From a virus, in IMG/VR virus record IMGVR_UViG_3300025668_000424, positions 1-26,250 of that record: a stretch of DNA of 26,250 bases. One strand, 5' to 3'. Positions 4,080 to 16,831 of the stretch are shown in pieces. Position 1 is the first letter of the stretch. Each line of letters starts with the position of its first letter. The notes under the pieces were generated by a model. The model did not search any database. It was not told the DNA's origin and saw only the letters and a list, made by a program, of their open reading frames with translations. A program made the position numbers and the translations under genes.

Positions 4080-5125
4080 TGAAGATAGCGATATTAAATG
4101 ATACTCACTTTGGTGTGAGAAACGATAGTCCAGCTTTTATAAAATATCAGAATAGATTTTATGATGAACTATTTTTTCCTTATCTAAAAGAAAATAATAT
4201 TAAAACGTTGATACATCTAGGTGATGTGGTAGATAGAAGAAAGTTTATTAACCACAATACAGCACACAATTTCAAAAATCATTTTTGGAATAAACTAGAA
4301 GAAGATGGTATTGATACACATATTATCATTGGCAATCACGACACATATTACAAGAATACAAATGAAGTAAACGCTTTACAGAATTTAGAGATTAATAAAA
4401 ATTCTAAAGTATACACACAAACAACAGAGGTTGAATTTGATAACTTACCTATACTATTCATACCTTGGATTTGTGACGATAACGAAGTAGAATCAGTAGA
4501 GAAAATTAAGAATAGTACCTCACCTATTGCAATGGGTCATTTAGAAGTCAAAGGCTTTGAAATGCACAACGGACATTTTAACGACCACGGACAAGAGAAG
4601 TCTATGTTTAAAAGGTTTGAAAAAGTATTATCAGGACACTTTCACAAGAAGTCAGATGATGGCCAAATATATTATATGGGAACACAATATGAAATGACTT
4701 GGTCAGATTATAATTGTCCAAAAGGATTTCATATATTTGATACAGACACCAGAGACTTGACAAGAGTATCAAATAATATTAAGATGTTTAAGAAAATAAT
4801 TTATGATGATAAACAAACTAATTACAATGAATTTGACATTACACCATATGATGAGTGTTTTGTTAAACTAATTATATCTCAAAAAACAGATAATGATATG
4901 TTTAATAACTTGATGGATAAACTGTACAATCAAATCAATGTACACTCGGTTGACGTTATTGAAGATATGTCAGATGTTAATGTGTCTGTTAAACAGGATA
5001 TAATTGAACAAGGCGAAGATACATTAACATTTTTAGGAAACTATATTGACCAAACAAATACAGACCTAGACAAACAAAAATTAAAAGCTTTTGCAAAAGA
5101 GCTATATAGTGAGGCAAGTGAATGA
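4079..5125 (+). CDS. 47: gp47 recombination nuclease subunit (SbcD/Mre11-like)
   Basis: A 348-residue calcineurin-like phosphoesterase, the nuclease partner of gp46 in the phage Mre11-Rad50-type complex that resects DNA ends. Metal-binding motifs are visible in order: D8-x-H10, GD49-x-x-DRR, GN86-H87-D88, GH153 and GHFH 186-189. Length matches T4 gp47 (339). The start overlaps the gene 55 stop (TAATG), and its stop overlaps the next start (ATGA). The 46 partner is separated from it by the oxygenase gene at 5122. Confidence 0.93.
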   Translation: MKIAILNDTHFGVRNDSPAFIKYQNRFYDELFFPYLKENNIKTLIHLGDVVDRRKFINHNTAHNFKNHFWNKLEEDGIDTHIIIGNHDTYYKNTNEVNALQNLEINKNSKVYTQTTEVEFDNLPILFIPWICDDNEVESVEKIKNSTSPIAMGHLEVKGFEMHNGHFNDHGQEKSMFKRFEKVLSGHFHKKSDDGQIYYMGTQYEMTWSDYNCPKGFHIFDTDTRDLTRVSNNIKMFKKIIYDDKQTNYNEFDITPYDECFVKLIISQKTDNDMFNNLMDKLYNQINVHSVDVIEDMSDVNVSVKQDIIEQGEDTLTFLGNYIDQTNTDLDKQKLKAFAKELYSEASE

Positions 5126-5802
5126 CAGTAGAAGTAAAAGGTAATTTTGGTGCAAATTTTGGTCCGTTTGTATATAATTATACAGCAGACGATAATCTAA
5201 TCAATGGACTATTAGAAAGAGCACAACAAAAAACACCAGGTAGTGGTAATAAAGAACTAGCAGGTGTGATAGAAGACCAACGTGGTTATTCTAGTGAAGA
5301 CAAAAAATGGTTTGTAGAGGCATTTCAACCATACATTTCAGATTATGCTAGAAAAAATTGTCACTTTAGAGGTGGTGAGTGGTCAAAAGGTTGGACAGAT
5401 AAATTTGAATTGATGAGTTTATGGATTAACTTTATGAAATCAGGAGAATCTAATCCTGTTCATCATCATAGTGGACAAATAACTTGGGTAATTTATTTAG
5501 AAACGCCTGATTTAGAAAAAGAACGAGAAGAGTATCAAGGTAGAAGTGTAGGACCTGGTGGTATTTGTTTTCATTATGGAGAACCACAATTTCCAGAATG
5601 GGCTTCACATACGTATGGTTATGTTCCTAAAAAAGGTGATATGTGGATTTTTCCAGCATTATTACGACACGAAGTTATCCCTTTCAAATCAGAGGGTACT
5701 AGAATTAGTGTATCAGGTAATTTCTTTTTCAAAAATCCAAATGAAAAATCTGGTATTATCGAAACAGCAATAGACCAAGACGCAAAGCATCCAAGAGCAT
5801 AA
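5122..5802 (+). CDS. Putative 2-oxoglutarate/Fe(II) oxygenase
   Basis: A 226-residue protein resembling the TIGR02466-type putative 2OG-Fe(II) oxygenases. The core has NPVHHHSGQ at about 112-119 with candidate metal histidines 114 and 116, a YLETP strand, a GGICF strand, then GDMWIFPALLRHEVIPF with a distal histidine near 183, and TRISVSGN with an arginine near 194 suited to bind 2-oxoglutarate. It sits between 47 and 46 with ATGA and TAATG overlaps, so it is translated with them. The substrate is unknown; hydroxylation or demethylation of a protein or base is possible. I have seen oxygenase genes in this slot described for marine T4-like phages, but have not checked. Confidence 0.75.
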   Translation: MTVEVKGNFGANFGPFVYNYTADDNLINGLLERAQQKTPGSGNKELAGVIEDQRGYSSEDKKWFVEAFQPYISDYARKNCHFRGGEWSKGWTDKFELMSLWINFMKSGESNPVHHHSGQITWVIYLETPDLEKEREEYQGRSVGPGGICFHYGEPQFPEWASHTYGYVPKKGDMWIFPALLRHEVIPFKSEGTRISVSGNFFFKNPNEKSGIIETAIDQDAKHPRA

Positions 5803-14472: not shown

Positions 14473-14676
14473 ATGAGTATAACAGTAGAAGTTAGAGGCG
14501 GAAACCTTGAAAAAGCTATGAGAGTGCTAAAGAAAAAAGTACAAAAAGAAGGCATTGTCAAGGAGTTAAGAGCCAAACAATACTATCAAAAACCTTCCGA
14601 AATCAAAAGAGAGAAGAAAAAAGAGGGTATCAAGAATTTCAAAAAAAAGATGAAGAAACTTGAACAACAAAGATAG
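14473..14676 (+). CDS. rpsU: Ribosomal protein bS21 homologue
   Basis: A 67-residue protein that follows bacterial bS21 along its length: a short strand (ITVEVRGG), a helix with LEKAMRVLKKKVQKEG, the ELRAKQYYQKPSEIKREKK segment (bacterial pattern R-x2-[FY]-Y-x-KP-[ST]-x2-[RK]-x2-[RK]), and a basic tail. bS21 sits near the anti-Shine-Dalgarno end of 16S rRNA and helps initiation. Phage bS21 genes are known in marine viruses, including Pelagibacter phages, and are thought to replace the host protein. A very strong SD precedes it. A putative structured RNA begins 38 bases after its stop. Confidence 0.9.
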   Translation: MSITVEVRGGNLEKAMRVLKKKVQKEGIVKELRAKQYYQKPSEIKREKKKEGIKNFKKKMKKLEQQR

Positions 14677-14700
14677 ATTTCCCGCCTGTGCTTAAATGAT

Positions 14701-14708
14701 GATAAATA
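14701..14708 (+). promoter_or_regulatory. Late-promoter variant GATAAATA before the putative ncRNA
   Basis: GATAAATA differs from the T4 late consensus in its first base only. With T4 spacing, transcription would start at 14714, one base before the first stem of the putative ncRNA. The fit in position is the main support. Confidence 0.4.
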
Positions 14709-14713
14709 TGGTG

Positions 14714-15045
14714 AGTAGGCAGCTCGTAAGACCTACGGCGTGGAGAGGCGACCAGAGCCTGTTGAAATAAACGAACTGGTTAGAGTTTGGTGATTCTCTA
14801 TAAAAATCACCACCTAATTCGGGTTCATTGGTCTTCGTAGCACTACGGTGATAGGCTTAGTAAGATAAGTTAGTATAATGAGGGTGAGACCTACCTCAAC
14901 CCAAATGTATTCAGTAGAGCGAGAGTGAACCTGAATAGTGGATTGTTTCAGCATTTGCGCTTAGTTTCGCACCACTTTAAACAAACAAACTAAAGCTGCG
15001 AGTTAATGTTTTGGTAGTTTTAAACTCAAAAAAGAAAAACTACCA
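14714..15045 (+). ncRNA. Putative structured non-coding RNA, about 330 bases
   Basis: A gene-free stretch, visibly richer in G and C than its surroundings, with no open frame of useful length. Many perfect stems can be drawn: GTAGG 14715/CCTAC 14732; ACCAG 14751/CTGGT 14776; TGGTGATT 14788-14795/AATCACCA 14805-14812; CGTA 14836/TACG 14844; TGAGG 14879/CCTCA 14894; TATTCAG 14908-14914/CTGAATA 14931-14937; TTAGTTT 14961-14967/AAACTAA 14987-14993. AGTGG 14937-14941 can pair with CCACT 14972-14976 in the last loop, as a pseudoknot. The 3' end is a 10-base hairpin at 15012-15045. I do not recognise tmRNA, RNase P, SRP RNA, 6S RNA or a group I intron core. It could also be a long rpsU 3' region. 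Confidence 0.55.
15012..15045 (+). terminator. Hairpin ending the putative ncRNA
   Basis: TGGTAGTTTT (15012-15021) pairs perfectly with AAAACTACCA (15036-15045), 10 base pairs, loop of 14. No U-run follows; instead the late promoter TATAAATA starts at 15047. It may terminate or protect the upstream RNA. Confidence 0.55.
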
Positions 15046-15046
15046 T

Positions 15047-15054
15047 TATAAATA
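15047..15054 (+). promoter_or_regulatory. Late promoter TATAAATA
   Basis: An exact T4-type late element two bases after a hairpin. The context TATAAATAACAATGA nearly repeats at 16313 (TATAAATAACTATGA). Predicted start about 15060, with a 73-base leader before the gene at 15133. Confidence 0.65.
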
Positions 15055-15064
15055 ACAATGAACC

Positions 15065-15107
15065 GGTTGTTTATTAAATTCTAGTAGAATTTTTTAAGTA
15101 AACAATC
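15065..15107 (+). other. Leader hairpin before the gene at 15133
   Basis: GGTTGTTTATT (15065-15075) pairs, with two G-U pairs, with AAGTAAACAAT(C) (15096-15107). Inside it AAATTCT (15076-15082) pairs with AGAATTT (15086-15092), leaving a TTT bulge. This AT-rich hairpin fills the leader between the late promoter and the GAGGAG ribosome site. Confidence 0.45.
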
Positions 15108-15132
15108 ATTAATAATACGAGGAGTATTAGAT

Positions 15133-16269
15133 ATGTATATATCAGACCTAAGAAAAGGTGACTACAAGTTACCTGACGCAGTAAAAAATATCGACTTAAA
15201 AAAATCACTAAACGCCTATGAAGAAAGCAAACATTTGTTTTCAATTAGTGAACAAGTTGATAAACATTTTAACAAAAGACTAAAATTTCCATTTACACCA
15301 ACAGAATTAAAATCTGACAAAGGATGGAAAGAAATAGGTATCAAACCTGACGGTGTTGATTTTCAAACAATCGACCAGAAAGTTAGAAAAGGCCGTAGTT
15401 TTGACACTTATGCTTGGATTCCTAATGATATGGTATACACCAATACTATTCATAATAGAGGAGACAATATTAATTTTACAAATATATCTACACATTTGGA
15501 TTTGAGAGGCGGCCTATTTTGGCAAGCTCTGAATATTACCGTAGTTGTATATTATGCTAAAGATGGAACATATAAATTTGTGACCGTGATTGGCAATCAT
15601 TGTACAGCAAAATCCATTATTGTAAGTGGACTTGGTGCACCTGTATTTGCTAGAGTTGTTTGTTTAGGTAAAGAAACATCTTTAGATGAAATCAGAAAGT
15701 TTGGTGCTATTATTCACCATACAGATAGTGATAGAAGAACAAATCAAGGCGCTGAAGATAGATTAGTTTCAGGTGCTCAAGCTGGCGAACCTCAATATGA
15801 AAATACAATGAGAGTTTTGGTTGATATGGGATTTGATATTAAAAATCAGGTAAAACAAAACGGTAAAGTTTTGAAAAAAATATCTTCTCCTACATCTTTA
15901 ATGGCTATTATCAAAGAGTTTGATTATGATTTAGTAAAAGAAAATGTTGCTTTATTAAACTCTGCTTATCCAAATGATACAACAATACTAACGGGTGGGT
16001 TATCAGTATTGACAACAATTAGACATTATTTTGATAATAAGATTAATAAACAAGATTTTGAGAATTGGTTTATGGAGTGGTCAGGCCAATTTGAACAATC
16101 AGATATATTTCCTAATTCAGGTAAAAACAAAGAAGTTATGATACCTGTTATGGAATTAATTAAAAATATCAATAGATGGAGTAAAAAAAATCTGAAAAGA
16201 AAACAGGTTTTAATTAGTATGAAAGATATTTACAAAGTTATTCCAGAAGATAAACTAGAAAATATCTAA
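15133..16269 (+). CDS. Unknown protein with possible ParB/sulfiredoxin-like domain
   Basis: A 378-residue protein; GAGGAG precedes the ATG. I do not recognise it firmly. Around residues 140-215 the order resembles ParB-like domains: a strand (TYKFVTVIGNHCTAK, where ParB has GxHR), a helix, a strand (APVFARVVCL), then DEIRKFGAIIHHTDSDRRTNQ, which recalls the helix and R-rich segment after the ParB motif. The usual arginine after GNH is replaced by cysteine. The C-terminal third is helical and basic. A late promoter and hairpin leader suggest late expression. Function unknown; a DNA-binding or nuclease role is only an inference. Confidence 0.7.
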   Translation: MYISDLRKGDYKLPDAVKNIDLKKSLNAYEESKHLFSISEQVDKHFNKRLKFPFTPTELKSDKGWKEIGIKPDGVDFQTIDQKVRKGRSFDTYAWIPNDMVYTNTIHNRGDNINFTNISTHLDLRGGLFWQALNITVVVYYAKDGTYKFVTVIGNHCTAKSIIVSGLGAPVFARVVCLGKETSLDEIRKFGAIIHHTDSDRRTNQGAEDRLVSGAQAGEPQYENTMRVLVDMGFDIKNQVKQNGKVLKKISSPTSLMAIIKEFDYDLVKENVALLNSAYPNDTTILTGGLSVLTTIRHYFDNKINKQDFENWFMEWSGQFEQSDIFPNSGKNKEVMIPVMELIKNINRWSKKNLKRKQVLISMKDIYKVIPEDKLENI

Positions 16270-16378: not shown

Positions 16379-16831
16379 ATGACTAATCACAAAGCAATTC
16401 ATTCAATTTTTACTGGACTAAAACCGTTTACCGTGGGGTTTGACGATATGTTTGAACATTTAGATAGTGTTCACAACCATATTCCACATATGACGGCTAA
16501 TAACTATCCACCATACAATATCGTAAAGACAGGTTCTTTGACATATGATATTGAAGTGGCATTGGCTGGTTATGGTAAGAAAGATGTATCAGTAAACTAT
16601 GAGGATAATATCCTTAAAATCGAATCAGTAAAAAGTAAAGACGAAAAAGAAGTTGAAGACAATGATGGTGTATTACACAAAGGCATTGCTAAAAGAAACT
16701 TTATGAAACACTTTACAATCGCTGATGATGTTGAAGTTAAAGGTGCTGAATTAAAAGATGGACTTTTGAAAGTATCTTTAGAGAAGATTGTTCCAGACCA
16801 TAAGAAGGCTAGAACTATCAATATCAAATAA
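16379..16831 (+). CDS. hsp20: Small heat-shock protein Hsp20
   Basis: A 150-residue alpha-crystallin-type chaperone. The domain runs from about 45 to 142: LTYDIEVALAGYGKKDVSV, a central region, and the signature AELKDGLLKVSLEKI (pattern AxLxxGxLxV). It ends with the INI motif that links oligomers. AAGGAG precedes the ATG closely. Marine T4-like phages often carry hsp20, probably to assist folding or scaffold proteins in infection. It is served by the late promoter at 16313 and followed by a hairpin at 16841. Confidence 0.92.
   Translation: MTNHKAIHSIFTGLKPFTVGFDDMFEHLDSVHNHIPHMTANNYPPYNIVKTGSLTYDIEVALAGYGKKDVSVNYEDNILKIESVKSKDEKEVEDNDGVLHKGIAKRNFMKHFTIADDVEVKGAELKDGLLKVSLEKIVPDHKKARTINIK

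What the first reader, a model, noticed from the sequence alone, without database searches (positions are those of the whole stretch)
14701..15045. Structured non-coding RNA directly after a phage bS21 gene
About 330 bases with no frame, visibly more G and C than around it, and many perfect stems (8 bp at 14788/14805, 7 bp at 14908/14931, 7 bp at 14961/14987, plus a possible pseudoknot AGTGG/CCACT). A late-promoter variant GATAAATA would start transcription at 14714, one base before the first stem, and a 10-bp hairpin closes it at 15045. It matches none of tmRNA, RNase P, SRP RNA, 6S RNA or group I introns that I can recognise. Placement after bS21 invites a role in translation or packaging.
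Basis: partly seen in the sequence, partly recalled or inferred. Interest (0 to 1): 0.82.

Follow-up and report, generated by a model that had tools for sequence, protein, structure and literature searches.

The report
New modular pseudoknot RNA in ocean phages
[quoted passage not shown] it is clearly real and conserved, but what it does is still unknown.

Summary
14677-15046 is a folded, non-coding RNA on the + strand, conserved in Pelagibacter phage Mosig and hundreds of marine viral contigs, with no Rfam match. Comparative evidence is strong: a 19-sequence alignment supports 89 pairs, 36 of them with compensatory double changes (0 of 500 shuffles). The "stems" are mostly parts of four H-type pseudoknots and a domain with a loop-loop contact.

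Three corrections. (1) The RNA begins at the bS21 stop codon, not 14714: helix P1, upstream of the putative late promoter, covaries. (2) The 15045 "closing hairpin" is stem 2 of a pseudoknot; no U-run follows, so it is not an ordinary terminator. (3) bS21 is not the anchor. The locus is CobS-(bS21)-(small gene)-[RNA]-hsp20; 95 of 240 loci lack bS21 directly upstream, and Melnitz, whose host is OM43, has a divergent copy.

The core is hairpin Hp1 (loop YUCRUAA) plus a terminal pseudoknot. Between them sit exchangeable modules. The smallest forms (about 70 nt) look like the hsp20 leader; larger ones usually have hsp20's own promoter behind them and persist where hsp20 is gone. Best guess: a leader that became a stand-alone phage RNA. 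Partner and function are unknown, and no transcript data exist.

The parts
14473..14676 (+). phage bS21 gene (67 aa), upstream neighbour in this lineage
   Evidence: Pfam PF01165 2.2e-16, PHROG 21469
14677..15046 (+). the structured RNA, whole (ends inferred from structure, not measured)
   Evidence: alignment A3, 19 sequences; 76% identity over 342 nt to Mosig
14681..14742 (+). P1: CCCGCC (14681-14686) with GGCGTG (14737-14742), one C.U mismatch here; encloses the promoter-like motif and Hp1; only in bS21-type loci
   Evidence: swap test 8.20 vs 6.43 +- 0.12; 9 of 9 pairs with double changes in A1
14701..14708 (+). GATAAATA, T4-late-promoter-like motif, conserved as ATAAATA or ATATATA
   Evidence: TAWATA invariant in 40 of 40; promoter function inferred
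14715..14736 (+). Hp1: GTAGG/CCTAC, inner pair C14720-G14730, loop AGCTCGTAA (consensus NNYUCRUAA), bulged A14731
   Evidence: covariation of pairs above a tree-based null (E below 0.05)
14746..14780 (+). PK0: S1 14746-14749/14757-14760, S2 14751-14755/14776-14780
   Evidence: S2 has double changes in 5 of 5 pairs, but only 69% of cells paired; S1 58%: the weakest of the four
14781..14812 (+). PK1: S1 TAGAG/CTCTA, S2 TGGTGATT/AATCACCA
14820..14903 (+). Domain 3: outer helix 14821-14824/14899-14902; loop-loop GGTCT 14830-14834 with AGACC 14887-14891; hairpins 14841-14850, 14856-14869 (loop GTAAGA), 14879-14898
   Evidence: A2, 24 sequences: 89.4% paired, 17 of 26 pairs with double changes, 0/500; loop-loop UA:14 CG:10, no exception
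14908..14937 (+). hairpin P5 TATTCAG/CTGAATA
   Evidence: 100% of cells paired, double changes in 3 of 6 pairs
14937..14993 (+). PK2: S1 AGTGG/CCACT (14937-14941/14972-14976), S2 TTAGTTT/AAACTAA (14961-14967/14987-14993), inner GC/GC 14951-14952/14959-14960
15000..15045 (+). PK3, terminal H-type pseudoknot: S1 GAGTT/AACTC (15000-15004/15023-15027), S2 TGGTAGTTTT/AAAACTACCA (15012-15021/15036-15045), A-rich loop 3
   Evidence: same fold at -20 kcal/mol or better in 200 of 224 relatives vs 35 of 224 shuffled, 113 distinct S2
15047..15054 (+). TATAAATA, late-promoter motif of the next gene, starting 2 nt after the pseudoknot
15133..16269 (+). 378-aa gene of unknown function inserted between the RNA and hsp20
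   Evidence: PHROG 15918, 5.7e-12; no Pfam
16379..16831 (+). hsp20, the usual downstream neighbour
   Evidence: PF00011 7.6e-15; downstream in 219 of 240 loci

Best explanation
A phage-specific structured RNA gene, one copy per genome examined, at the site between CobS/bS21 and hsp20. Core: hairpin Hp1 with the near-invariant loop NNYUCRUAA, followed by a terminal H-type pseudoknot with a U-rich first and A-rich third loop. In bS21-type phages a closing helix P1 and optional modules (further pseudoknots, Domain 3, a 3' hairpin module) are added and exchanged by recombination. Shown: fold, strand, site, single copy, modularity. Inferred: the smallest forms are the 5' leader of hsp20; in the larger forms a second promoter after the RNA has made it separate, and it acts as a stable RNA that offers the Hp1 loop to an unknown protein or RNA, while the terminal pseudoknot protects or insulates its 3' side. 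I give about 0.95 to a real conserved new RNA family and about 0.35 to this mechanism.
For: Covariation: P1+Hp1, Domain 3, whole RNA, tree-based test for Hp1, alignment-free swap test. + strand: 60 G.U against 14 A.C in the four Hp1 pairs scored. Terminal pseudoknots far above shuffles, loop 1 54% U, loop 3 56% A. Pattern hits chosen without context lie at one site, hsp20 downstream in 219 of 240. Single copy: pattern in the window and HTVC008M, one model match per phage record searched. Small form with sigma70-like promoter: exact -35 in 15 of 22, and no promoter before hsp20 in 21 of 21; larger classes have one in 45 of 47 and 112 of 126. Independent of hsp20: in L153 and L158 hsp20 lies elsewhere, in six others it is not found in the DNA held. 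Module exchange: L013 and L017 agree almost base for base up to Domain 3, then carry different modules.
Against: No transcript, end mapping or binding partner is known. P1 needs RNA from upstream of the putative promoter, so in the bS21 class either read-through RNA is the active form or the motif is not the promoter. No excess of sites complementary to the loop near phage gene starts (9 against 7.9 +- 5.2). A second TCGTAA-type loop (Hp2) is seen only in one class.
Confidence: 0.5

Rival explanations
1. A cis-acting 5' leader that controls hsp20 (or whatever gene follows), as a riboswitch, thermometer or mRNA stabiliser.
For: Smallest class: promoter, Hp1, pseudoknot, leader hairpin, ribosome site, hsp20, with no promoter in between (21 of 21). 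hsp20 follows in 219 of 240 loci.
Against: Larger classes usually have their own promoter between RNA and hsp20. In the window another gene with its own late-promoter motif follows. The RNA stays where hsp20 moved or is missing.
Confidence: 0.25
2. A 3'-UTR element of the upstream operon: pseudoknots block 3'-5' exonucleases or read-through and so stabilise CobS/bS21 messages.
For: In bS21 loci the structure starts at the bS21 stop codon; the terminal pseudoknot with U- and A-rich loops is the type expected to be very stable.
Against: Does not explain the near-invariant Hp1 loop nor the promoter at its 5' edge in the CobS-only class; the upstream gene changes between classes.
Confidence: 0.17
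3. It works together with phage bS21 in translation, for example by binding the altered ribosome.
For: 80 of 80 bS21 loci have it.
Against: Found without bS21 between CobS and RNA in 22 loci; Melnitz has a divergent copy with no bS21 annotated nearby.
Confidence: 0.06
4. The region encodes short peptides, as annotated in Mosig (Mosig_00014, _00015).
For: Two short CDS are annotated over it in MT647606.
Against: Longest ORF in the window is 24 aa; length changes are not in threes; the variation is that of base pairs.
Confidence: 0.02

Closest known systems
manA RNA (RF01745)
   Same: Structured RNA of marine T4-like phages, with a pseudoknot; reported upstream of ibpA-type chaperone genes among others (PMC2864571).
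   Different: Not matched by this RNA; in Mosig a true manA RNA (64 bits) lies elsewhere, before what looks like the gp32 gene, at the same time.
L17 downstream element (RF01708)
   Same: A conserved RNA just after a ribosomal protein gene.
   Different: No Rfam match; this RNA survives without the ribosomal protein gene next to it.
tmRNA (ssrA)
   Same: A long RNA with several pseudoknots in a row; Melnitz carries a two-piece tmRNA elsewhere (PMC9004378).
   Different: No tmRNA found by ARAGORN or Rfam, and no tag reading frame recognised.
T4 gene 32 leader pseudoknot (from memory)
   Same: An H-type pseudoknot upstream of a phage gene followed by A/U-rich RNA.
   Different: Here a conserved hairpin and many modules accompany it, and the next gene has its own promoter in most classes.

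Membership tests
manA RNA RF01745 | covariance model score at or above 55.2 bits | tested here: not met
   no gathering hit in the window and none at E up to 10 over 14600-15135; the model finds a separate locus in Mosig
Glutamine riboswitch RF01739 | covariance model match in the RNA | tested here: not met
   none in the window; seen only as separate elements further downstream in L047, L054, L060
tmRNA | tRNA-like domain and tag reading frame | tested here: not met
   ARAGORN 0 genes in the window; no Rfam tmRNA
6S, RNase P, SRP RNA, group I intron, any other Rfam 15 family | covariance model match at gathering score | tested here: not met
   0 hits in the window; representative loci gave only tRNA and glutamine riboswitch at other positions
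ribosomal-protein autoregulatory RNA (bS21) | linked to the r-protein gene | tested here: not met
   95 of 240 loci without bS21 directly upstream; 22 with none between CobS and RNA
ribosomal-protein autoregulatory RNA (bS21) | bound by the protein and represses it | not testable with these tools
   needs a binding assay
stand-alone late phage ncRNA | discrete transcript with own ends | not testable with these tools
   no RNA-seq of pelagimyophage infection found; the transcriptome paper found uses podoviruses
H-type pseudoknot (structural class) | two crossing stems supported across relatives | tested here: met
   loop composition

The most novel reading that the evidence does not exclude
A new class of phage RNA made as a cassette: an invariant recognition hairpin followed by pseudoknot and kissing-loop modules that phages swap by recombination, acting in trans on a host or rival-phage factor late in infection of the ocean's commonest bacteria.
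Probability: 0.25. Interest if true: 0.9.

Novelty: categorically new. Interest (0 to 1): 0.73.

Why it matters
It appears to be an undescribed RNA family in phages of SAR11 and of OM43, spread over hundreds of viral contigs, at one fixed locus. It is unusually modular: close relatives share the 5' part nearly letter for letter and then carry different pseudoknot modules. The size series from about 70 to 370 nt suggests how an mRNA leader may become a separate RNA gene. Cultured phages with both forms exist (Mosig, HTVC008M, Melnitz), so transcription and function can be tested directly. "Categorically new" refers to the RNA family; its building blocks are ordinary.

Tried and rejected
Known RNA families: Rfam at gathering and at E up to 10, ARAGORN. 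Host origin: a genome scan gave 26 scattered hits with no Pelagibacter among the titles (not inspected one by one), and 385 Alphaproteobacteria gave none, though that search had no positive control. Cyanophage homologue at hsp20: in those looked at, hsp20 sits elsewhere (between regA and gp43 in several) and no Hp1 was found, only the leader hairpin. Loop as antisense seed to phage gene starts: no excess, no shared target. Reading GGC-NNY-TCR-TAA as a short ORF end: no open frame leads into it in the window. Late promoter as the 5' end in bS21 loci: P1 argues against it as the only 5' end. P1 in the other classes: absent. The tree-based covariation test on the MAFFT alignment of the 5' domain gave significance for two Hp1 pairs only; P1 was not significant there because its strands are misaligned, hence the swap test. 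A loose pseudoknot count in the window alone was no better than shuffles. Literature searches for such an RNA found nothing; the library lacks most subscription papers.

Full report
What was claimed.

The sequence. The stems exist at the stated places. The region is richer in G+C than its flanks and its longest ORF is 24 aa. Rfam finds nothing in the window and only chance hits for the region at E up to 10; ARAGORN finds no tRNA or tmRNA. Folding alone gives z = -2.57, suggestive only.

Relatives. Pelagibacter phage Mosig has the same RNA after its bS21 gene, 76% identical over 342 nt, where two short 'hypothetical proteins' are annotated. A scan of IMG/VR with bS21 gave 80 loci; all 80 have the key hairpin within 160 nt of the stop codon. 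After merging, 240 distinct loci remain: 145 with bS21 directly upstream, 95 without. hsp20 lies downstream in 219 of 240. The gene order is CobS, optional bS21, optional small gene (that of HTVC008M), RNA, hsp20, gp45. The Methylophilales phage Melnitz has a divergent copy before hsp20 (21.7 bits, rough E 0.18 for the record); its fold, Hp1, a second hairpin and a terminal pseudoknot, was read by eye. Of the cyanophages looked at, none shows the RNA at hsp20. No host copy was found, with the limits named under Tried and rejected.

Hp1. The hairpin has the form GG-C[NNYUCRUAA]G-N-CC with a freely varying outer stem: pair types CG, UA, GC, AU, GU, UG at one position. Two of its pairs exceed a tree-based null (scores 121.7 and 103.1 against a null maximum of 66.2). 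G.U outnumbers A.C 60 to 14 in the four pairs scored, which marks the + strand as the RNA.

P1. In bS21 loci the sequence just after the stop codon pairs with the sequence just after Hp1: TTTTACGCC/GGCGTAAAA, TTTTAACAC/GTGTTAAAA, TTTGTCCTC/GAGGACAAA, CCATCGC/GCGATGG and others. Own strands pair better than swapped strands (8.20 against 6.43 +- 0.12), and all nine pairs show double changes in an alignment made without structure. In the other classes there is no P1. Since the promoter-like ATAAATA/ATATATA motif lies inside P1, RNA made from that motif would lack P1's 5' strand. So 14714 cannot be the only 5' end that matters in this lineage.

Pseudoknots. In the window clade 89 pairs in 19 helices, four pseudoknots included, were counted on 19 sequences: 36 pairs with double changes, covariation 0.231 against 0.122 +- 0.006, no shuffle as high, and sliding the partners destroys the signal. 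The sequences are related and the shuffles ignore that, so the slid control and the swap test matter. PK0 is the weakest. The terminal pseudoknot is the other general feature: -20 kcal/mol or better in 200 of 224 natural 3' regions against 35 of 224 shuffled, with 113 different second stems, U-rich loop 1 and A-rich loop 3. It is not followed by a U-run in the window; TATAAATA of the next gene starts two bases on. In HTVC008M and the window the Hp1 pattern occurs once, and R1 finds one match in each phage record searched.

Domain 3 (14820-14903) is found in 24 distinct relatives with 17 of 26 pairs doubly changed and a loop-loop contact that is GGUCU-AGACC in 14 and GGCCU-AGGCC in 10, without exception.

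Modules. L013 and L017 agree almost base for base through PK1 and into Domain 3, then carry different Domain 3 cores and different PK2 types. A hairpin with GGGAACTGGTAGGGATCCTNAGCC occurs in 57 IMG/VR contigs, and in 28 of 33 distinct contexts it sits behind this RNA.

Size series. In the CobS-only class the RNA is only Hp1 plus one pseudoknot, behind a sigma70-like promoter (exact -35 in 15 of 22), and runs without any further promoter into hsp20 (21 of 21). In the HTVC008M-like class and the bS21 class a promoter motif stands between RNA and the hsp20 leader in 45 of 47 and 112 of 126. In L153 and L158 hsp20 lies elsewhere and the RNA has stayed; in L093, L097, L112, L122, L171 and L185 hsp20 is not found in the DNA held.

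Reading. I think the small form is the original: a structured hsp20 leader. Larger forms look like a separate RNA. The near-invariant Hp1 loop, kept in loci with and without bS21 and hsp20 and also present in Melnitz, asks for a specific partner, protein or RNA; the terminal pseudoknot probably guards or insulates the 3' side. These last steps are inference. A search for loop-complementary sites at phage gene starts gave no excess.

Known relatives. manA RNA, the nearest known marine phage RNA, is present in Mosig at another locus, so the two coexist. The published tmRNA and glutamine riboswitch of Melnitz (PMC9004378) are described at another place, beside the ssrA gene. Literature searches gave no description of this RNA.

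Noticed in passing
L345-L350 and pelagimyophage loci, just before hsp20: The hsp20 leader hairpin (GNNNCGCC...GGGNNNC, then CTTGCTT/CTCGCTT and the ribosome site) is shared by cyanophages and pelagimyophages.
   Followed up: partly
L340 1501-1708 (-), Mosig 108164-108371: A manA RNA above the Rfam cut-off upstream of what looks like the gp32 gene; weaker relatives in HTVC008M (5037-5223) and L343.
   Followed up: partly
L047 1398-1448, L060 3053-3103, L054 2988-3038: Glutamine riboswitches (RF01739) further downstream on the same contigs.
   Followed up: no
L008, L047, L060, L359 and other loci, right after the RNA: A near-identical hairpin module TTCACTAGGGAACTGGTAGGGATCCTCAGCCTAGTGAA that looks recently spread.
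   Followed up: partly
L085, L114, L140 after the terminal pseudoknot: Another shared module, AAGCGATTATGGTTCTAGTTTACTAGAATCCCGGAAATAAA, resembling a tRNA T-arm.
   Followed up: no
L073 1680-1829: Two tRNA genes on the same contig downstream of a variant whose 3' half was replaced.
   Followed up: no
window 15133-16269: 378-aa gene of unknown function (PHROG 15918) inserted between RNA and hsp20, with its own late-promoter motif.
   Followed up: no
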